Shown here piece by piece: positions 23,072 to 33,884 of a DNA stretch of 38,347 nucleotides. The DNA is from Solirubrobacterales bacterium (GTDB taxonomy: Bacteria; Actinomycetota; Thermoleophilia; Solirubrobacterales; Solirubrobacteraceae). Made by a program: the position numbers and the translations under genes. Below the pieces are notes generated by a model that saw nothing but the letters and a program-made list of their open reading frames with translations, was not told the DNA's origin and did not search any database. Numbering within the stretch: position 1 is the first letter of the stretch; each line of letters opens with the position of its first letter. The stretch lies in NCBI GenBank assembly GCA_003151895.1, contig PLYX01000084.1:1-38347 (forward strand), read 5' to 3'.

Positions 23072-23232
23072 TCACCCGCGCGTGGTTTGCTCGGCGATCG
23101 CGCCCTGGACCCGCCAGCCCCTGTCGGTGAGCGTCCAGGCGTTGGGCTCGCCGCGCGAGGCCCCACCGCCGGTGTTCTCGATCGGGCCGATGTCGTGCAG
23201 GCGGGCGAGCGGCGTGCTGGCGCTGGTCCGGT
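23072..23232 (-). pseudogene. Duplicated C-terminal segment of the TetR-type regulator at 24670-25695
   Basis: Minus strand reads LARLHDIGPIENTGGGASRGEPNAWTLTDRGWRVQGAIAEQTTRG*, versus LARLRQLGLIENTGGGATRGEPNAWTLTDKGWGVQGAIAEQTAGG* at 24670. Confidence 0.85.
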
Positions 23233-23239
23233 AGACGGG

Positions 23240-24490
23240 TCAACCGCCGCTCCACAGCCCCGAGACCGGCACCGCCCATATGCGCTCGCCAAACGGCAAG
23301 GTGTGTTCTCCGCAGTACACGACGACGCCTGCCTTGAAGCGGGCGCCGAGCTTGTCTCGCAGGAAGCGCAAGCCGCGCAGACCGGATGCGTCGACGCTGG
23401 TGCCCGCCTTGACCTCAATGCCCACCACCTCGCCGGACGGCGACTCGACGAGCAGGTCGACCTCGCGCTTCTCGGTGTCTCGGTAGAAGTATGGCTCGAC
23501 GCGAATGGTGCTCCAGGTCGCCTGCTTGACGATCTCCATCAGGACGAAGGTCTCGAACAGCATGCCGGCGAGGGCCCCTTGATCGGGGGCGGAGTAGCGC
23601 GTCTCGTCGGCGCCCAAGAGCGCGGCGGCCATGCCGCTGTCCGAGAGGAACAACTTGGGCGTCTTGATCTGCCGCGAGCCGAGGTTCGTCGACCAAGGAC
23701 GCAGCTTGTACAGCAGGAACAGCTGCGAGAGCAACTCGACGTGAGCCTTGATCGTCTTGTCGTCGAGCGCGAGATCGCGCCCGAGCGCGGCGTAGTTGAC
23801 AAGACCGCCGGTACGCGCCGCAAGCAGCCCCAGCAGCCTTTCGAGCTTGGCCGAGTCGATCCGCACCTCGCCCACGTCCGGCAGATCGCGGCCGAGGACG
23901 GTCCGCGCGTAGGAGCGGAAGTAGCGCAGGCGCTGACGCGGAGTACGATCGAGCGCGTCAGGGTAACCTCCGGCGACGACGAGCTTGGCAACTGCGCCGC
24001 GGCCCTTCGGAGCGCCGCTTACTCGCGGCGGCTCGCCGGCGAGCAGCGCGTCGATGACCGAGGTGCGCGTACCGGCAAGCTCGGCTTGCGCGAAGGGCCA
24101 CAGGTTGACGTACTCAACCCGTCCGGGCAGCGCATCGGCGATTGCTCTCGAGGTGATGAGATCAGCCGATCCGGTGAGCAGAAACTGACCGGGTGTGAGA
24201 TCGTCGTCGAGGATCTGCTTGATGGCGAGCATCAGCTCCGGCGCACGCTGAACCTCGTCGATGACGGCCGGCCGCGCCAGCGACAGGGCGAATCCGTCCG
24301 GATCGGCGAGTGCCGACTTGCGCGTCTGCTCGTTGTCTAGGCTGAAGTAGTTTGGAACCAGGCCCGCTGCCTGCAGCTGCTTTGCGAGCGTGCTCTTGCC
24401 CGCCTGACGCGGCCCGACGATCGCCGCGGCGCGACTCACGCTGAGGATGTCGCGCACCTCACCTTCGATGCCTCGTCGAATCAACGCCAT
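23240..24490 (-). CDS. DUF4143-type AAA ATPase (second copy, divergent sequence)
   Basis: Walker A VGPRQAGKSTLAKQL; AVIDEVQRAPELMLAIK; C-terminal EVDLLVESPSGEVVGIEVKAGTSVDASGLRGLRFLRDKLG. Confidence 0.88.
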   Translation of the reverse strand: MALIRRGIEGEVRDILSVSRAAAIVGPRQAGKSTLAKQLQAAGLVPNYFSLDNEQTRKSALADPDGFALSLARPAVIDEVQRAPELMLAIKQILDDDLTPGQFLLTGSADLITSRAIADALPGRVEYVNLWPFAQAELAGTRTSVIDALLAGEPPRVSGAPKGRGAVAKLVVAGGYPDALDRTPRQRLRYFRSYARTVLGRDLPDVGEVRIDSAKLERLLGLLAARTGGLVNYAALGRDLALDDKTIKAHVELLSQLFLLYKLRPWSTNLGSRQIKTPKLFLSDSGMAAALLGADETRYSAPDQGALAGMLFETFVLMEIVKQATWSTIRVEPYFYRDTEKREVDLLVESPSGEVVGIEVKAGTSVDASGLRGLRFLRDKLGARFKAGVVVYCGEHTLPFGERIWAVPVSGLWSGG

Positions 24491-24506
24491 CGTTGCCTCC
24501 AAGTTT

Positions 24507-24598
24507 GCCGACCGATCCGGAATAGGATAGCTGATCAATCCGGAGTAGCATGGCCGACTAATCCGGAATAGGAGACCCGACTATCTCGGACTATGACC
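24507..24598. repeat. Four head-to-tail 23-bp imperfect repeats upstream of ATPase gene 2
   Basis: gccgaccgatccggaataggata / gctgatcaatccggagtagcatg / gccgactaatccggaataggaga / cccgactatctcggactatgacc, exact 23-bp period. Confidence 0.75.
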
Positions 24599-24669: not shown

Positions 24670-25695
24670 CTACCCGCCGGCGGTCTGCTCGGCGATCGCG
24701 CCCTGCACTCCCCATCCCTTGTCGGTGAGCGTCCACGCATTGGGCTCGCCGCGGGTGGCTCCGCCGCCGGTGTTCTCGATCAGCCCGAGCTGCCGTAGGC
24801 GGGCGAGCAGCTTCGACATCTGGCCCTGGTCGGTGACCTCGGCGGTGTCGGCGACGGCCCGGTTGGATGGATAGGATCCCCGCCCACCCAGCTCGGCGAT
24901 CGCCGCCAGGACGCGCACGGTGCGGTAGGTGAGCCGCATCTCCAGGTGACCGAGCGGGTTGCCTTCCGTACGCCGGCTGCCGGCCGCGGTCTTGGGGACG
25001 GGCCGGCCGAGCTCCTTGCGCGCGGCGGCGCGACCGAGATAGGGCAGGACGACCATGCCCATCAGCGGGCTGCTCAGTTCCACGAGCCGTCCCGGCTTGT
25101 CATCCAGGAGCCGTGAGTGCAATACCGAGAGGACCCCGCCGACGACGCCCTCGGCTGTGAGGGGTGGCAGTTCATCGGCTGCCTTTGACTCGTTGCGTCC
25201 TTCGTCGATGAGGCTAATAATTTGGGCGATGCCACGCTGGCGGCACTCCAGCGCTTTGTGGCCCGCGCCCAACGATCCGACGATAAGGAGCTGCCCCACA
25301 CCACGCTCCATGTCAAGGAACGACAGCAATCCGGTGAGAGATGTCCTGATCCGCTCGGCCCACGGTGCTTTGGGGTCGTAGGAGTCGAGCACATACCGTG
25401 AGGCCCGCGCGATCCCGTCGTCAAACGCGGCGAGGAAGCAGTCTTCGCGGTCGGCGAACAGCTCGTAGAACGTGCGGCGAGAGACACCCGCACGCTCCAC
25501 GACGTGCGCGACGGTGACATTCCCCGCGCCACGCTCGCCGCAAACCTCGGCCATCGCGGCGAGTATCCGTGCGCGCTGGATGTCCAATACCCGCTTGTGC
25601 CCGTTAGGGTGCTCGCGCTCCAACCCGTTGGGCGCGACCGTCATCAGCCCGCCGGACGCGGACCCACCAGACGGCGCCCACTCATCGGTTGACAT
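24670..25695 (-). CDS. TetR-family regulator with an additional C-terminal winged-helix segment
   Basis: ARILAAMAEVCGERGAGNVTVAHVVERAGVSRRTFYELFADREDCFLAAFD (TetR HTH); C-terminal LTYRTVRVLAAIAELGGRGSYPSNRAVADTAEVTDQGQMSKLLARLRQLGLIENTG (wHTH). Confidence 0.88.
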   Translation of the reverse strand: MSTDEWAPSGGSASGGLMTVAPNGLEREHPNGHKRVLDIQRARILAAMAEVCGERGAGNVTVAHVVERAGVSRRTFYELFADREDCFLAAFDDGIARASRYVLDSYDPKAPWAERIRTSLTGLLSFLDMERGVGQLLIVGSLGAGHKALECRQRGIAQIISLIDEGRNESKAADELPPLTAEGVVGGVLSVLHSRLLDDKPGRLVELSSPLMGMVVLPYLGRAAARKELGRPVPKTAAGSRRTEGNPLGHLEMRLTYRTVRVLAAIAELGGRGSYPSNRAVADTAEVTDQGQMSKLLARLRQLGLIENTGGGATRGEPNAWTLTDKGWGVQGAIAEQTAGG

Positions 25696-25698
25696 CGT

Positions 25699-27942
25699 CT
25701 ACCCCCTCTTCTTCGCCTTCCTGGCGCTCACGTTCGTCGCCGCCGAGCCGTAGCGTTTGTGTGCCTGCTTGTCGCACTTGGCGCGCTTGCTTTTGGACTT
25801 ATCCTTCTTACACGCCTTCAGCGCCTTTGCGAGCTTCTGGGCGCGGGTGAGCGCCTTCGGCGTGCTTTTCGCGACCGGTTCTTCGGCGGGGAAGACGACC
25901 GGGGTGACGGCTATCAGCGGGACGGAGGGGATCGTGAAGCTCGTGAACACGGTCGTGCGTGCGGCGCCGGCCGTCGTGAACGTCTCGTCCTGGCCGTAGC
26001 TGGCTCCCGCCCGGTTGGTCGCCGCGACCCGGTAGTGGTAGGTCATGCCCGGAGCGAGCCCAACGAGCGCGGTGATCGTGCCTTGGCTGCTCGTGAACGG
26101 CGCCAGCGCAGCGGGGCCCGGTGCGCTCGAACCGTAGCCGGCGGTGGTGCCGTACTGCACTTCGTAGGTCGTTTCAAGCCCTTCCGGGTTCAGTTCGCCC
26201 TGGATCACCGCGCTGTCTTCGTTGACGAACTGCGCGGACTGCGCTCCGACGACCGGTGGTGTCGTGAGGGGTTCCGCGGGGGCTGTCGTGAACGTCTCGT
26301 CCGGACCGGTTTCCGTGGCGTTGCCGTTATCCGCGACGACCGCGTAGTGGTAGGTCGTGCCGGGTTCCAGACCGTAGAGTTCCACCGAGGCGACCGTTTT
26401 GTCGAGCAGACCCGACCCGGCGCTCGCACGAGCCGAGGCCAATTCGTTTGCTTCACCTGTCCCGTAGAGGATGTAGTACGTCGCTTCCAGCGGCGCTTCG
26501 ATCTCCGGGTCGATCGGCGACGGCTTGATCAGCACCGTATGCTGCGTGACTTCAATCGCTTCCGGCAGGCCGGCGATGTGCGGCGGCGTTCTCGTCAGCG
26601 ATTGCACCGTCCCGTCGACCGTTCCCGTGTTGTTGCTCGCCACGACACGGTACTCATAAGCCGTGTTTTCCTGGAGGCCCGTCAGTGTCGCGGTGAACGC
26701 GACGGGAGACCCACCCTGGCCGAATTCCGTTGCGGGAGGCACAGGGGAGCACGCCGCGGCCGCCACGTTTTCCGTGAACCCGGTCGCTTTGAAGACCGCT
26801 TCGGTGACGTACTGGACTTCGCACGCCGCAACCCCCTGGTACTCCGGGTTCAACTGCGCTTCAATCGTATCCGAGGACAACGTCGCACCGACGAGCTTCT
26901 CGCCCGTAACGCTCGGCTTTTCCGCGGTCAGCGTCGTGAATTCTCCGACCGGGTGTGCGACTGTGCCCTTCGCTTCCCCGGTCGCGTTCTTCGCCACCAC
27001 GCGGTAGTAGTACGTCGTGTCCGGCGTCAGACCGCCCCCGAGATCCACCGGGCCAACCGACTGGTTGGCAGAGACACCCGAGCCGACGCCGCCGAACGCC
27101 AGCGTCTTGACGTTTTCCGTGAAGCCACTGTCTGTCGCGTATTCCATGTGATATGTCGTTTCCTGCCTCTCTGGGTTGACCTGCCCTTCGAGGGTCGCGT
27201 CGAACGGCGTGACACCAGATTCGCCCTCGGTGACGACAACGGGCTTCTCAACGGACGTTGTGAACGTCAAGGGCAGCCCGAACGCCGCTTCGCCCACTTC
27301 GTTGGTCGCGACAACGCAGAACGTGTATTCGGTGCTCCCCTCCAGTTCCGTCACCGGAGTCGATACTGTCCTTTTCGTTTCCGTGGTTTCAGCGCCCGGT
27401 GTGGTCGTGAAGCCTTCGCAGGTCCCACCAGAGCCGTAGGCGAAGTAATAGCCATCTTTGGCGGTCGAGTGCGGATTCAGTTCGCCCTTCAGCGTCGCCG
27501 TCGTACCCGTGACCAGTTCCGCTTTGAGCGTTTCCGGAGTTTCCGGGTGCAGCGCGGTCGTGAAGGGGTCTATTTTGGCCTTGGTTTCTTCGCTCGATGC
27601 GTTCTTGGCAATCACCCGGTAGTAGTAGGTCGTGGCCTGTGTAAGCCCTGAAACGGTCAGGCCGACGCCCTGTTCGCCCAACCCTTCGATGGTTTCCGGT
27701 TCACACGGTACGGTCGTGGGCGTGGCAAGCAAGGGTTCTCCGGCCTCATACTGAAATTCGCATTTCGTGGACTGACCGTTCGGATTGATGACGGCTTCCA
27801 GACGTACTTCGGTCGCTTTGGGAGTCGGGGCGCTCTCGCTGACGATCGTGGGCGCCGCAGCCAGAGCCGGGGCAGCGGTGAGGGCAAGGAGACCGACAGC
27901 ACAAGCCAGCCCGAGCAGAGTGAATCGACGAATAATACTCAT
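25699..27942 (-). CDS. Secreted multi-domain protein with about six FN3-like repeats and a basic C-terminal tail
   Basis: Signal peptide MSIIRRFTLLGLACAVGLLALTAAPALA; repeated strands TYYYRVIAKNASSEE, EYTFCVVATNEVGEA, TYYYRVVAKNATGEA, AYEYRVVASNNTGTV, TYHYAVVADNGNATE, TYHYRVAATNRAGAS. Confidence 0.75.
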   Translation of the reverse strand: MSIIRRFTLLGLACAVGLLALTAAPALAAAPTIVSESAPTPKATEVRLEAVINPNGQSTKCEFQYEAGEPLLATPTTVPCEPETIEGLGEQGVGLTVSGLTQATTYYYRVIAKNASSEETKAKIDPFTTALHPETPETLKAELVTGTTATLKGELNPHSTAKDGYYFAYGSGGTCEGFTTTPGAETTETKRTVSTPVTELEGSTEYTFCVVATNEVGEAAFGLPLTFTTSVEKPVVVTEGESGVTPFDATLEGQVNPERQETTYHMEYATDSGFTENVKTLAFGGVGSGVSANQSVGPVDLGGGLTPDTTYYYRVVAKNATGEAKGTVAHPVGEFTTLTAEKPSVTGEKLVGATLSSDTIEAQLNPEYQGVAACEVQYVTEAVFKATGFTENVAAAACSPVPPATEFGQGGSPVAFTATLTGLQENTAYEYRVVASNNTGTVDGTVQSLTRTPPHIAGLPEAIEVTQHTVLIKPSPIDPEIEAPLEATYYILYGTGEANELASARASAGSGLLDKTVASVELYGLEPGTTYHYAVVADNGNATETGPDETFTTAPAEPLTTPPVVGAQSAQFVNEDSAVIQGELNPEGLETTYEVQYGTTAGYGSSAPGPAALAPFTSSQGTITALVGLAPGMTYHYRVAATNRAGASYGQDETFTTAGAARTTVFTSFTIPSVPLIAVTPVVFPAEEPVAKSTPKALTRAQKLAKALKACKKDKSKSKRAKCDKQAHKRYGSAATNVSARKAKKRG

Positions 27943-30900
27943 TTCTTACCCCCACGGCTCGACTTGACGACTTTCTTCTTCTTCTTGACAGCCTGCTTGG
28001 CCTTCGCACAGCCTGTGACCCCGATCGGAGTGGACTGATGGATGACCGCGCCGTTCTGCGCGGTGAACGCCGTCGGCATCGCGAGCTTTGACGTGCAGAG
28101 GTTGCCGTTCGCCGCGAGCGCGGAGTACTTCCCCTCGGGGAGGTAGATCTCAAAGGAGCCGATCGGGACGTCGGGGACCTGCTTGAACGTGCTGCTGGTG
28201 ATCCCGGCTTTCGAGATGAACGTCGAGGCGACGAGGTCGACCCTGACCCCGTAGCCCTGGAGGACCGCGACCAGCGACGGGAACGCTTCGCCGCCGTGGG
28301 AAACGAAGTACACCGGGCCCGTCAACGCGACCGGCAAGACGGGAGTGAGCGCCTTGACGACCCCGATCTTCGACGCGACTGGACAGCCGGCCGGGTTCGC
28401 TTCGAATTGTGCGGCGGTGCACGCCTTCTGCAGCGTCGTCAGCCGCGAGGGCAACTGCTTGGGGAGATCGACCTTCACGCTCGCGATATTCGACTGGCTC
28501 GAGGCCTGGTTGGCGCCCAGCGCCCCGGTCGGGTAGAGCACCTTCGCGTCGAGGCTGGCCCCGTTCGCTCTGGACGTCTTGCCCGAGGTCGAGACTTTGA
28601 AGTTCGGCTTGAACGTCAGCGCCCGGCAGGACCCGACCTGGAAGTGGCTCGAGATCGGCGCGGTCGCGCCTGCGGCGCTCTGCGCGACACCTGAGAACTC
28701 CATCGGGGCGCAGCTCGTCGGGTTGAACATGAACCCGGGCCGGTCGATCACCGTGTTGATCTGACGCAGATTGGTCGGTATGCCGTCCAGTATCTGCGGC
28801 AGCGGTTCGGTTGAGATCGTCAACTGCGCGGTGTGCGGATCGACGCTGATCGCGGCACGCACCACGACCGTTCCCAGGTTGAACGGGCCCGCGATCACGG
28901 GCACCACGATCGACAGGCCAAAGGGAGCACCGCGATAGGGGCCCGTCAGATAGATCGGCGCCGGAGGCTGCCCCGCCTCCGGAACGTACAACGGGTCCGG
29001 GCCGGCACCGGCGCCGACGACCGTATGACCGATCTGCGATTCAGCGGAGCAGGTTCCCAACGAAGCTTGTGGTTCCGGACACAACGGGACCTTGCTGATC
29101 ATCCCCAACAAGCCCTCGGGCGTCTTGAACTGCAGTCCCCCGATCCGCTGCTGACCATCAGAGCGAGAGAGCAGCAGCGAGAAGTCCGTATACCCCCCCG
29201 CCTGGTCGGTCGTGGCGCCGGCGATCAGAGACGGGCTGAACGGCAGCGGCGACTGGCACGCAGATCCCGCAGGGCCATTATCCAGCGCAAAGGCGTTTGC
29301 CGAGCGGAAGTCGGGCGTACCGGGACTGGCCCACGGCGTGAAATCGGCGAGCGAGGAGTACACCCCACACGACGGCGGAGTCGTCAGCGCCGCCTGCGCG
29401 CCGCCGCTGAATATCAACCTGAAATGGGTGAATGGCAACGCCGGCGTGCCCGTGAAGGTCGTAGTCAGCTGTCCGGTTTCTTCGTTGAGGTGCACGTCGC
29501 CGATCAGCTTGAGGTTGACGTCGTCCGCCGAGGCGGCAACCAGAAGCTGCACATTCGGCGGCGAGGACTGCAGCAGGTAGACGGACCCTTCGAGCTTGTC
29601 AGGCAGTAGCGGCGTCTCGATTTCGTCGGTCCCGACCTTCGAATCCGCGGGGCACGACGGCTGAGAACCGGTCCCCACACCGTCTTCGGAGTACTGACAC
29701 GCGCCGAGCCCGTTCGCCTGCCCGGGGCTGATCACCATTCCCTGCGGCAGCGTCACCGTGGTGTTCTGCAGAGTCGAGGTTGCGAGCGTGGTCGGGCTGC
29801 TCAAGCCTTCACCCTGCGGCACGCTCACTTCCACGGTCGTCCCGGACGGCGTGTCGGCGAACGTGGTATCCGGCGAGACAGTCAGATACGGAGTGAAGGC
29901 CGGCAGCAGTTCACAACCAGTCAGCGGCGGGTCCGTGACCGAGTATGACTTCCAGTTCGGGTCGCTCAGATCGGGGGCACCGCTCGCTGTGACGCGTCCG
30001 GGGTGCAGATAGGAGTCCACGATCACTTTGAAGACCAACGGCCTCCCGCACTGGCTGGGTACCGTGAGGAATGGCGTATGTGGCAGCGGCGAGCCCGTGT
30101 CGTGGCTTGCATCGGCCGGGACCCCCCAGATCTGTGCCGTCAATCCTGTGAGCAAGCCCAGTGCGCCGGGAATGTTGGGGGTCTCGCTACTCAAGCCGTA
30201 ATCGCTTTCGGTGCGGACTCCGTTGACCAATTTCACCTGCACGACACCGTTCCCGGCGGTGAAGCCCATCTCGTTCGTGTGCCCATTGGCGGGCTTCATG
30301 TTGAAGATCGTGGAGCTCGGCAAGCCGGATACACCGCCGCTGATACCAAAGTGAATGCCGCCGACCTCGCTCGCGCCAGAACAGCCCCGTTCGAGCGATT
30401 CGCACTGCGCCAGTGCGAGCTCATTGCCGGCCACCCCTGGCGGCAACTGCAAGATCAGATCCTTCACATCTTCGACGGGATCGTATTCCCCGGCGCTCTT
30501 GATCTCGTCATTGAAGAGAAGCGAGAGGGTCACCTGGTAGGGGTGCGCGCCAGCTTGCGTCTCAGGGTTACCGGCAGCATTGGTGAACTCGGCCAGCAGG
30601 CTGCTCGGCTGGATGCCGAAAGGCGCGGGCGTCGAGCTGACCGTCAGCTGCTGATTGAGTGTCGCCGGGGCCATGAGATTACCGGAGCCGTCGGTTCCTC
30701 CGGATACCGTAGCCGTGCTAGCTCCGGTGCCGGCCGAAGCTGTTGTGAGCTTCACAACCGCATATACCACATATCCGGGCGGCATCACGCCTGTATATGT
30801 GCACGGACCCTTGGGCTGGACACACTGCATCTGCGGATTGAACCCACTCACGTCCGGGTATCCATCTTCGCCATGTTCCGCTATTTCGGCCTTAATTTCG

Positions 30901-31178
30901 GCAGGGATGACGCTAGGGTCTTGGATATTCACATTTAGCGTGATCGGATTCTTGCTGCCATCAATCGAGACATCACCCAGGTTGCGTGCCGTCAGCTCGA
31001 TCGTGTCATCTTCACGACTATCTCCGTGCAAAACGCTGTTGGGCGGGAAATACGTGGGGCTCGTCCCCCCGACGATGCTCCAGGCCGGGTCTTCGCTCGC
31101 CAGCGCCGGCGAGGCGCTGAACGCCAATATCGCGAGCAGCGCGGCGATAAGGAGGACCGGCACGAATCGCTTGAACAT
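27939..31178 (-). CDS. Large secreted protein of unknown function with Lys-rich C-terminus
   Basis: 1079 aa; signal MFKRFVPVLLIAALLAILAFSASPALA; C-terminus AKQAVKKKKKVVKSSRGGKK; 4-nt overlap with the downstream ORF. Confidence 0.7.
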   Translation of the reverse strand: MFKRFVPVLLIAALLAILAFSASPALASEDPAWSIVGGTSPTYFPPNSVLHGDSREDDTIELTARNLGDVSIDGSKNPITLNVNIQDPSVIPAEIKAEIAEHGEDGYPDVSGFNPQMQCVQPKGPCTYTGVMPPGYVVYAVVKLTTASAGTGASTATVSGGTDGSGNLMAPATLNQQLTVSSTPAPFGIQPSSLLAEFTNAAGNPETQAGAHPYQVTLSLLFNDEIKSAGEYDPVEDVKDLILQLPPGVAGNELALAQCESLERGCSGASEVGGIHFGISGGVSGLPSSTIFNMKPANGHTNEMGFTAGNGVVQVKLVNGVRTESDYGLSSETPNIPGALGLLTGLTAQIWGVPADASHDTGSPLPHTPFLTVPSQCGRPLVFKVIVDSYLHPGRVTASGAPDLSDPNWKSYSVTDPPLTGCELLPAFTPYLTVSPDTTFADTPSGTTVEVSVPQGEGLSSPTTLATSTLQNTTVTLPQGMVISPGQANGLGACQYSEDGVGTGSQPSCPADSKVGTDEIETPLLPDKLEGSVYLLQSSPPNVQLLVAASADDVNLKLIGDVHLNEETGQLTTTFTGTPALPFTHFRLIFSGGAQAALTTPPSCGVYSSLADFTPWASPGTPDFRSANAFALDNGPAGSACQSPLPFSPSLIAGATTDQAGGYTDFSLLLSRSDGQQRIGGLQFKTPEGLLGMISKVPLCPEPQASLGTCSAESQIGHTVVGAGAGPDPLYVPEAGQPPAPIYLTGPYRGAPFGLSIVVPVIAGPFNLGTVVVRAAISVDPHTAQLTISTEPLPQILDGIPTNLRQINTVIDRPGFMFNPTSCAPMEFSGVAQSAAGATAPISSHFQVGSCRALTFKPNFKVSTSGKTSRANGASLDAKVLYPTGALGANQASSQSNIASVKVDLPKQLPSRLTTLQKACTAAQFEANPAGCPVASKIGVVKALTPVLPVALTGPVYFVSHGGEAFPSLVAVLQGYGVRVDLVASTFISKAGITSSTFKQVPDVPIGSFEIYLPEGKYSALAANGNLCTSKLAMPTAFTAQNGAVIHQSTPIGVTGCAKAKQAVKKKKKVVKSSRGGKK

Positions 31179-31179
31179 G

Positions 31180-33378
31180 TTACTTCCTCCCCTTTGCCGA
31201 CTTCTTGGCCTTCGGCTTCTTTACGCACTTGTTGTGCTTCTTGACAAAACCCTTCTTGCACTTGATGGACTTGGTCTTTGGTTTGACCGGCGCGACCGGT
31301 GACGGCGAGGGCGGTGGGAAGTTCCCGACGCCGTTGAACGTCACACTCGCCGGGGTCGCGAAGATCGGCGGAGCCGCCGGCACCCCCTGACACGAAGTGC
31401 CCGAGCACGCCGGCGCAGCCAGGACCGGGAAGCCACCACTTACTCGCGCGTCGTAGACATCTGGCAGTCCATCCTTGTCCTGCGTCACGAGCTGGCTCAC
31501 GGTGCTGAAGAACACGCCGTTCCCGCTCGGGGTGGAGTCCAGCAGCTCGGCCGCAGAGGCGATCAGGTACAAGTGACCGTTCTCGTACTCGTATACGTTT
31601 GAGTATCCATACGGAGCACCCAGCGGCGCCCCTGGAGTCAGGGAGTCGGGCGAGTTGAAGAACACCCGGCTACCATCATCGCTCATCATCCTGGGCGGCG
31701 GCAGCGTTTCCTCTTCCGGGTAGACGAAGTTACCTTCAGGCGTGGTCGTAGGGACGAACGCTTCGCCAGCGGGCGGCGCTCCCGTCGGGTTGCACGACAC
31801 GCAATTGAGACTCTGTGTGACCGCGTCGTACAGATATACCTCGTTCACGCCATGCTGTTGGTAGGAGGTCAGGTTTTCGCTGTCCAAGAACATCAGATGC
31901 TCCCCGTCGGGCGTCACCTCGAGATTGCCGCGACCCATGCCGCGCGGCGGGTAGAGGCTCATCGCGGTGGCCGGGGCTACGAATGTCGTCTGGCCGCTCG
32001 TTGCGTCATACACGTAAAGATTCGGTTGACCGAAGCTTGCACCTGGAGCAAGTACGCCCGAGGCCACGAAATAGATGCGTGAGCCGTCGCCGGAAGACCC
32101 GACGATGCCCTCGTAGGTGCTGACGCTCGCGCCGTTGGGGTCCTGATAGTGATTGTCAGGCGTCAGGTCCGACAACACGCCCGTCTTCAGGCTGTAGGAA
32201 TAGAGATCGCTGCCCTGGTCTTCACTGCCGGTATTGGCGTTGTTCGTCAACTCCTCGCTCGAAGTGAAGTAGACAGTCGTGATCTTCCCGCCTTCTTCGG
32301 CCGAGCCGGCGTACCACTTGGGCCGCGGACCGTGAGGATCGCGGCCGCCCGGGCCACTGCCGTTCGTCTTCTGCGAGGCGGAGACATTTACAGTTGACGT
32401 ATCGTTCTGCCGTATAAACACTTCCGCCGGAGGACAGCCGACCTCTTCGGTCTTGGGATCCGGGCTGGTGAAGATCACCTCCGAGCCGTCGGCCGACACC
32501 GCGCCGCGTACCGGCGCAAAGCCCGTGGTACCACCTTCGCCTTGCGGGTTGGTTTCATACCACTCGTTTCCCATCGCCGCGCCGCATGGCGGAACGACGC
32601 AGCTCCCGTGCGAAGGATCGCATCCGACCCCCGTGGCGGGCACCAACCCCACGAGCTGATCGGCTCCACCCACAGACTCGTAGACCTCATATCCCTTTTC
32701 GTGCGTATCGGGCACAGAGCCGGAAAGCGACGCCGGCGGCGTCACCAGCGAAGAGCGCTGCTCCCAGACGATGTCGCTCAGATCCGCAGATCCGCCGGCG
32801 AACCATGCGCTATTGCCGTAGCAGCCAGGTATGTTGTTGCAATTTTCGTCGTGGTAATTGTTGAGGATGACCCCGGGTTCCTTGATAGCCGGGGCGGGAG
32901 GACCCGTGATCCATTCGAGCGGGCCACCTGCCCCGTTGCGCAGATAGACGTCCTGGTTGCGACTTGGGTCACGTGGATCGAGCGACATTTCCGTACGGAA
33001 GGCAAAGCGCGAGAAGGCTTCGTTCACGGCATTGAGCAGAACTTCGCGCTGTTCGACGAAATACGCCCCAGCCCCTGGCGGCGGGCCGACCTGTGCTCCG
33101 CTCCAGCCCGTCGGGGTGCGCGTCTCGAGCATCCACGACATGCCACTGGAGAGCAACGCATTGTAGGTACCGCCGTCCACGATCACCTCGTCGCCGCTCG
33201 CGTTGGTGACGACCATGCTGGGCTCCTTGACCTGCGCACCCTTTTCGATGGGACTGACCATCTCGTACTGGCGGTTGTCGGGGAGGTTCGCGAGCGCCGC
33301 GCAGGCGAGCACGAGCAGCATGGTCGTCGCGATACACAGCGAAGCGCAGCTTGCCACGGTCAGTCTACGAACGTGCAT
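31180..33378 (-). CDS. Secreted beta-propeller-like (TolB/WD40-like) protein with a Cys-Lys C-terminal motif
   Basis: ATG at 33378 with SD gaggagggg 7 nt upstream; signal peptide; repeated propeller-like strands (SDLYSYSLKTGVLSDLTPD, NLYVYDATSGQTTFVAPA, EVYLYDAVTQSLNCVSCNPTG); C-terminus IKCKKGFVKKHNKCVKKPKAKKSAKGRK. Confidence 0.72.
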   Translation of the reverse strand: MHVRRLTVASCASLCIATTMLLVLACAALANLPDNRQYEMVSPIEKGAQVKEPSMVVTNASGDEVIVDGGTYNALLSSGMSWMLETRTPTGWSGAQVGPPPGAGAYFVEQREVLLNAVNEAFSRFAFRTEMSLDPRDPSRNQDVYLRNGAGGPLEWITGPPAPAIKEPGVILNNYHDENCNNIPGCYGNSAWFAGGSADLSDIVWEQRSSLVTPPASLSGSVPDTHEKGYEVYESVGGADQLVGLVPATGVGCDPSHGSCVVPPCGAAMGNEWYETNPQGEGGTTGFAPVRGAVSADGSEVIFTSPDPKTEEVGCPPAEVFIRQNDTSTVNVSASQKTNGSGPGGRDPHGPRPKWYAGSAEEGGKITTVYFTSSEELTNNANTGSEDQGSDLYSYSLKTGVLSDLTPDNHYQDPNGASVSTYEGIVGSSGDGSRIYFVASGVLAPGASFGQPNLYVYDATSGQTTFVAPATAMSLYPPRGMGRGNLEVTPDGEHLMFLDSENLTSYQQHGVNEVYLYDAVTQSLNCVSCNPTGAPPAGEAFVPTTTPEGNFVYPEEETLPPPRMMSDDGSRVFFNSPDSLTPGAPLGAPYGYSNVYEYENGHLYLIASAAELLDSTPSGNGVFFSTVSQLVTQDKDGLPDVYDARVSGGFPVLAAPACSGTSCQGVPAAPPIFATPASVTFNGVGNFPPPSPSPVAPVKPKTKSIKCKKGFVKKHNKCVKKPKAKKSAKGRK

Positions 33379-33655
<277 letters not shown>

Positions 33656-33856
33656 CTATTACGGACCCGCCAGCGACACACGGACTCTCAAGCACGTTAT
33701 TCCCCAGTGAATGCACGCGAAATACAACTCCCTCTCAGAAGCGACCCGGTCCCTCTCCCAAGGTCCCTGTCAAACGTTTACGGTCGACCACAGAGCCAAC
33801 CCAAAACCCGACCTTATGTCCCGTCGCACCCTTGACGGATACGAACACGTCGCCAC

Positions 33857-33884
33857 TATATACCCTACTGACGTAAGTTGTCAA
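33857..33884 (-). promoter_or_regulatory. Sigma-A-type promoter of the secreted-protein operon
   Basis: Minus strand TTGACA (33884-33879), 16-bp spacer, TATATA (33862-33857). Confidence 0.6.

What the first reader, a model, noticed from the sequence alone, without database searches (positions are those of the whole stretch)
25699..33378. Three-gene operon of giant secreted proteins with no gaps
ORFs of 1079 and 747 aa and one of ~732 aa (from the ATG at 33378) are packed with a 1-nt gap and a 4-nt overlap. All have signal peptides and all end in Lys/Arg-rich tails (KSAKGRK, KKKKKVVKSSRGGKK, SARKAKKRG). One is propeller-like, one has ~6 FN3-like modules and the middle one has no fold I recognise. 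The base composition looks less GC-rich than the flanks. Together this suggests a co-secreted surface or extracellular complex of unknown function.
Basis: partly seen in the sequence, partly recalled or inferred. Interest (0 to 1): 0.65.

Follow-up and report, generated by a model that had tools for sequence, protein, structure and literature searches.

The report
Expanded surface-protein operons with microsatellite leaders
The three secreted proteins belong to one of about 27 copies of a surface-protein gene cassette that fills about 7.6% of this uncultured bacterium's assembly; many copies have their own regulator and a conserved, microsatellite-bearing leader, which suggests that the cell keeps a large, individually switched wardrobe of surface complexes.

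Summary
In detail: three secreted-protein genes (732, 1079, 747 aa) with a 1-nt gap and a 4-nt overlap, signal peptides and basic tails. The unit is larger: a TetR regulator with an added winged helix follows 3 nt later, and a conserved promoter and leader precede it. It is one of about 27 paralogous cassettes in this 2.9-Mb, 74%-complete genome (223 kb, 7.6% of the assembly). A better-assembled congener (G138) has about 33. The middle protein's family was found almost only in Solirubrobacterales.

The first protein is a TolB/S9-like beta-propeller, the middle one a chain of Ig-like sandwiches with eight conserved cysteine pairs, the third Fn3 repeats. Propeller and Ig-stalk co-evolve; the regulator does not follow them.

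New here: 7 own and 17 G138 cassettes share a TTGACA-type promoter, a ~225-nt leader, a conserved hairpin and a (CT)11-15 array shortly before the first gene. In 1.13 Mb examined no other dinucleotide array exceeds six units. No Rfam match.

Best reading: a repertoire of alternative envelope complexes, switched one by one by regulator and/or length-variable leader. Switching is inferred, not shown; a protein-coding reading of the leader failed a codon-position test.

The parts
33855..33884 (-). sigma-70-type promoter, TTGACA ... TATATAGT
   Evidence: Same TTGACA/TATA arrangement before the leaders of C186, C211, C185, C34 and C278; TTGAC 228-272 nt before the CT array in nearly all leaders
33604..33854 (-). 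conserved leader of about 225 nt plus array; near-invariant boxes ATA.GRTC.GGTT and GGGAGAGGGAC..GRTCG
   Evidence: 76-88% pairwise identity to four other own leaders over the whole alignment (57% to C278), own and G138 leaders alignable throughout; no Rfam family
33631..33655 (-). hairpin/palindrome GACGCGTCAGCGTCGCTGACGCGTC
   Evidence: 99.6% of cells paired, 11 cells changed on both sides against 1.8 in shuffles; pattern confined to cassette leaders in G000 and G138, one non-perfect hit in 22 other congeners
33604..33631 (-). (CT)14 microsatellite
   Evidence: All arrays of more than six dinucleotide units in 1.13 Mb of own and G138 loci lie at leaders, lengths 11-15 apart from rows truncated or written on the other strand
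33376..33417 (-). GGGG..TCCTCCCC hairpin, SD and start codon of PROP
   Evidence: Same motif before the first gene in C185, C184, C98 and C120
31180..33378 (-). PROP: secreted beta-propeller, 732 aa, Lys-rich tail
27939..31178 (-). BIG: secreted chain of Ig-like domains, 1079 aa, eight conserved Cys pairs, Lys-rich tail
25699..27942 (-). FN3: secreted Fn3-repeat protein, 747 aa, Cys-containing basic tail
24670..25695 (-). REG: TetR_N domain plus C-terminal MarR-like winged helix, 341 aa
   Evidence: 45-70% identical paralogues next to other cassettes
23075..23218 (-). relic of a second REG C-terminus, beyond a DUF4143 ATPase gene
   Evidence: 77% identity to REG residues 294-341

Best explanation
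The cassette makes one of about 27 alternative envelope complexes of an uncultured Solirubrobacterales bacterium. Propeller and Ig-stalk are exported by Sec and work as a pair; Fn3 arms are fused to the propeller or added as a separate protein; basic tails hold the complex to anionic envelope polymers. It acts as an adhesin or ligand-binding head on a stalk. In the leader-bearing class, transcription starts at a sigma-70-type promoter about 225 nt before a hairpin and a CT microsatellite. Each such cassette is turned on or off separately by its TetR-winged-helix regulator and by the leader, whose array can change length by slippage, so that cells of one clone can show different complexes. Shown here: repetition of the cassette, gene order, fold classes of the models, conservation of leader, hairpin and array, PROP-BIG co-evolution. 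Inferred: surface location, ligand binding, switching and its mechanism.
For: About 27 copies in the own genome and about 33 in G138. Conserved order and co-evolution. Signal peptides, Cys pairs and basic tails. Leader, promoter, hairpin and array restricted to cassettes. Array length 11-15 differs even between leaders that are 82-92% identical. Leader and REG go together in G138: 13 of 17 leader cassettes have REG against 1 of 15 others, Fisher p 8e-5 (counted by hand, test).
Against: No expression, localisation or within-population length data. Roughly half of the BIG copies have no recognisable array leader. REG does not co-evolve with the structural genes, so REG may not be specific to its cassette. 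Arrays vary only over 11-15 units, which also fits a functional tract of fixed approximate length. Outside the own genome and G138 the leader was not found in the genus except for a 21-base array match in G139.
Confidence: 0.5

Rival explanations
1. Ligand-specific regulation without hypermutation. Each cassette is a separate sensor-controlled operon, as in SusCD loci. TetR-winged-helix regulators read different effectors, and the leader is an attenuator: hairpin plus pyrimidine-rich (CU)n acts as a terminator or Rho loading site, perhaps blocked when the near-invariant GGGAGAGGGA box pairs with the CU array.
For: Dedicated regulators; promoter spacers differ between cassettes; the predicted consensus structure pairs the purine box with the array; hairpin conserved with paired changes. 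Pyrimidine-C dimers count among the descriptors of Rho rut sites (PMC9160355); a Rho-dependent leader is reported for a Mycobacterium tuberculosis M-box (PMC12810186, abstract seen).
Against: An attenuator does not need a perfect dinucleotide array; array lengths differ between near-identical leaders; no ligand or enzyme gene in the cassette; the purine-box pairing shows no covariation because the array is invariant.
Confidence: 0.25
2. Frame-based phase variation. The array lies inside an upstream ORF; two phases stop 4-9 codons after the array, and the third stays open towards the start of the structural gene and unmasks its hidden SD by translational coupling.
For: 20 of 23 full leaders have an open frame with a start before the array; typically one phase is open to about the start of the next gene; 22 of 24 assembled arrays are in a short phase. 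SD-proximal hairpin in five cassettes.
Against: No third-position excess before the array and only a slight one after it; three leaders lack the frame; open frames of this length are common by chance at 70% GC; the leaders are homologous, so the counts are not independent.
Confidence: 0.12
3. The leader is mainly a DNA element: the palindrome is the operator of REG or a recombination site, and the polypurine/polypyrimidine array promotes gene conversion that shuffles cassettes.
For: Leaders of neighbouring cassettes are 91-92% identical while their BIG proteins are 51-53% identical (gC4a/gC4b, gC3a/gC3c), and leader and BIG identity correlate weakly overall (r 0.28); REG is shuffled relative to BIG; covariation in a palindrome also fits a dimer-binding DNA site.
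Against: Strict strand orientation and position downstream of a promoter in all cases; no integrase or inverted-repeat boundary was noticed.
Confidence: 0.13

Closest known systems
Mycoplasma gallisepticum vlhA surface lipoprotein family with (GAA)n promoters (PMC6258824, abstract)
   Same: Many paralogous surface genes, each with a conserved flank around a short repeat of varying length before the gene
   Different: Here a CT dinucleotide array inside the 5' leader and not upstream of the promoter; multi-gene cassettes with a regulator; an actinobacterial lineage; no demonstrated switching; no sequence relation claimed
Bacteroidetes SusCD-type utilisation loci (from memory)
   Same: Many paralogous operons per genome, conserved pair of envelope proteins, local regulators
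   Different: No TonB-dependent transporter, SusD or enzyme in the cassette; different folds; single-membrane-type exported proteins with basic tails
TolB/S9-peptidase propellers, PrgB and integrin-type Ig stalks
   Same: Fold class by Foldseek
   Different: No sequence similarity to solved chains, low TM-scores, no peptidase domain apparent in PROP
Bacterial leader attenuators and riboswitches
   Same: Promoter, long structured 5' leader, terminator-like hairpin before the operon
   Different: No Rfam match; a CU array in place of a U tract; no ligand known

Membership tests
Repeat-driven phase-variable surface-gene family (vlhA-like in working) | many paralogous surface-protein genes per genome | tested here: met
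   About 27 and about 33 copies
Repeat-driven phase-variable surface-gene family (vlhA-like in working) | short perfect repeat with conserved flanks at a fixed place before the gene | tested here: met
   (CT)11-15 in 24 leaders, no other dinucleotide array above six units
Repeat-driven phase-variable surface-gene family (vlhA-like in working) | repeat length varies within a clone and sets expression | not testable with these tools
   Single consensus assemblies only; no reads or expression data
Repeat in an upstream coding frame (frame-based switch) | array lies in a protein-coding frame under amino-acid selection | tested here: not met
   Flat codon-position differences; three of 23 leaders lack the frame
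SusCD-type utilisation locus | SusC/SusD pair plus glycan-degrading enzymes | tested here: not met
   None of the four window cassette proteins matches such families in Pfam or NCBIfam
Known riboswitch or leader RNA family | match to an Rfam covariance model | tested here: not met
   Only a sub-threshold chance match, then none
TolB/S9-type beta-propeller fold | propeller fold | tested here: met
   Foldseek E down to 8e-12, TM about 0.3; fold class only
TetR-family regulator | TetR_N helix-turn-helix | tested here: met
   TetR_N 40.9 bits, cutoff 24; the extra winged helix is a departure, MarR_2 scored just below its cutoff

The most novel reading that the evidence does not exclude
An uncultured, non-pathogenic-looking actinobacterial lineage runs a repertoire of some 20-35 surface-complex operons in which a conserved leader RNA carrying a CT microsatellite, together with a cassette-borne TetR-winged-helix regulator, switches each operon stochastically: an antigenic-variation-like system with a new leader RNA family and a new Ig-stalk family.
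Probability: 0.33. Interest if true: 0.85.

Novelty: new variant of a known kind. Interest (0 to 1): 0.66.

Why it matters
A lineage that spends some 6-8% of its assembled sequence on alternative envelope complexes, many with their own regulator and a length-variable leader, implies strong diversifying pressure on its surface (phages, predators, hosts or substrates). Repeat-driven variation of surface families is best known from host-associated bacteria; its hallmarks here would make the question of why other bacteria vary their surface directly testable. The leader, the Ig-stalk family and the TetR-winged-helix fusion matched no curated family in the libraries searched.

Tried and rejected
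(1) Foreign island by GC: rejected, the regulator in the same cassette has normal GC. (2) Phage or plasmid origin: no BIG homologue in 50,697 phage or 72,556 plasmid records. (3) Known RNA family: none. (4) Leader as a conserved small protein with in-frame (SL)n: looked attractive, failed the codon-position test. (5) An antiterminator helix between ACGYG and the 5' arm of the hairpin: 97% paired in my helix scan but short, G-C rich and not tested against controls; not claimed. (6) DUF4143 ATPase beside the window cassette as a fifth member: its paralogues are not cassette neighbours elsewhere as a rule. (7) A class-wide sorting tail: the Fn3/propeller tail motif was found only in this genome (20 matches, all cassette genes) among 61 searched; congeners were not in that sample. 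(8) Literature searches found no description of this family; other searches returned only unrelated papers.

Full report
WHAT IS THERE. The three ORFs are as described. They are followed 3 nt downstream by a 341-aa regulator (REG) with an N-terminal TetR_N domain and a C-terminal MarR-like winged helix. The 732-aa protein (PROP) models as a beta-propeller and matches S9-peptidase and TolB propellers with Foldseek E-values down to 8e-12; TM-scores are about 0.3, so only the fold class is claimed. The 1079-aa protein (BIG) has no family match and no sequence match in the PDB. Its model (pLDDT 81, pTM 0.71) is all beta, and the best structural matches are strings of Ig-like sandwiches: PrgB, complement proteins, integrin alpha chains, an adhesin. 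Conserved cysteines fall in eight neighbouring pairs (259/266, 377/422, 494/509, 604/641, 700/710, 823/851, 920/932, 1028/1057), as expected for disulfides in an exported protein. The 747-aa protein (FN3) is Fn3-type repeats.

ONE OF MANY. In the window's own genome (2.92 Mb, 291 contigs, 74% complete) there are about 27 BIG, 24 PROP and more than 20 Fn3 genes on shared contigs. Cassette genes take 223 kb, 7.6% of the assembly (some split or misjudged genes are possible with my simple gene caller). Two layouts occur: separate PROP, BIG, FN3, REG (this window, C21, C98, C184), and a fused Fn3-propeller of about 1,200-1,550 aa followed by BIG, with REG first or last (C34, C100, C186, C211, C278). 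Other congeners have between 2 and 15 tblastn matches; G138 (3.3 Mb, 40 contigs, 92% complete; contig lengths equal those of JANWIP, isolate CRAIB_MAG44) has about 33 copies, with at least 189 kb of cassette genes in the stretches read. The expansion is therefore not an artefact of one poor assembly. By name the family was found in MAGs labelled Solirubrobacterales, Solirubrobacteraceae or simply Actinobacteria, in 10 of 119 genomes of a class-wide sample, nearly all of the same order and the one outside it a weak match, and in no phage or plasmid record. The BIG tree groups copies largely by genome (7 label changes against about 20 in shuffles), so much of the expansion is lineage-specific, yet both genomes occur in several clades.

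MODULES. PROP and BIG identity matrices correlate (r 0.83, p 0.0005 in G138; 0.43, p 0.01 in the own genome), whereas the REG-BIG correlations are 0.02 and 0.07. I read this as an obligate structural pair and a separately shuffled regulatory gene. A REG-tail relic at 23075-23218 is a local trace of rearrangement.

THE LEADER. The DNA upstream of PROP matches upstream regions of other own cassettes at 83-94% identity in its best stretches, while the BIG proteins of those cassettes are only 44-60% identical to each other. The block begins at a TTGACA/TATA promoter, runs about 225 nt, and ends in a hairpin followed by (CT)11-15. In seven own cassettes and 17 mapped ones in G138 it lies on the coding strand shortly before the first gene, whichever gene that is; an eighteenth G138 hairpin lies near a contig end. 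In 1.13 Mb of own and G138 loci no other dinucleotide array exceeds six units. The hairpin is kept by paired changes (99.6% of cells paired; 11 cells with both sides changed against 1.8 in shuffles). Genome-wide the hairpin pattern is confined to leaders in these two genomes; in the other 22 congeners there was one imperfect hit and the reversed control pattern gave none. Covariation of a palindrome cannot by itself separate an RNA hairpin from a dimer-binding DNA site. No Rfam family matches. A second, array-less leader type is shared by C184, C98 and C120, and diverged pieces of the first type lie before C40 and C120. Leader and REG go together: 13 of 17 leader cassettes in G138 have REG against 1 of 15 others (counted by hand; Fisher p 8e-5).

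MECHANISM. Sec export, a propeller head, an Ig stalk, Fn3 arms and basic tails make an envelope-bound binding complex likely (inference). Dozens of alternative copies, local regulators and a length-variable array make separate switching the best reading (inference). The array could act through transcription, RNA folding, recombination or reading frame. The last was tested and is not supported at the protein level: codon-position differences are flat before the array, and 3 of 23 leaders lack the frame. A coupling ORF whose peptide does not matter is not excluded.

COMPARISON. The nearest parallel in working is vlhA of Mycoplasma gallisepticum, where conserved flanks surround a variable (GAA)n before many surface genes (PMC6258824). 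There the repeat lies upstream of the promoter; here it lies in the leader, and the unit is a multi-gene cassette with a regulator. No relation by descent is claimed.

LIMITS. The genomes are MAGs; there are no expression data; array lengths are single consensus values; start codons of many paralogues are longest-ORF guesses; signal peptides were judged by eye or by a regular expression; leader searches used DNA similarity, so diverged leaders in other congeners may be missed; the identification of search handles with named assemblies rests on equal contig lengths; not all members of the genus or class were searched.

Noticed in passing
G018:C7:254180-274387 (L144, L145) and G015:C7:9047-24475: Open frames of 7,223 and 5,628 aa made of many tandem BIG-like units in another family of the same order.
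   Followed up: partly
window 23075-24538: An AAA_14/DUF4143 ATPase gene lies between REG and a second, truncated REG C-terminus, a trace of recombination or insertion beside the cassette.
   Followed up: partly
L016:2893-4359, L020:4309-5646, L022:2807-4171, L029:7759-9201: Proteins of about 445-490 aa matching the TetR part of REG, one confirmed with two TetR_N domains, lie beside some cassettes that lack the array leader.
   Followed up: partly
L016, about 300 nt upstream of 4897 (G000:C184): A run of about 14 C next to Ns in the array-less leader type: possibly a homopolymer repeat, possibly an assembly problem.
   Followed up: no
L023:12291-13160 (G000:C34): A collagen-repeat protein gene lies between REG and the Fn3-propeller gene of one cassette.
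   Followed up: no
L098, L103, L107, L127, L128 and similar loci; G000:C158: A BIG subfamily of about 1,010-1,060 aa without PROP recurs in similar gene neighbourhoods in several species: possibly the non-expanded, older form.
   Followed up: partly
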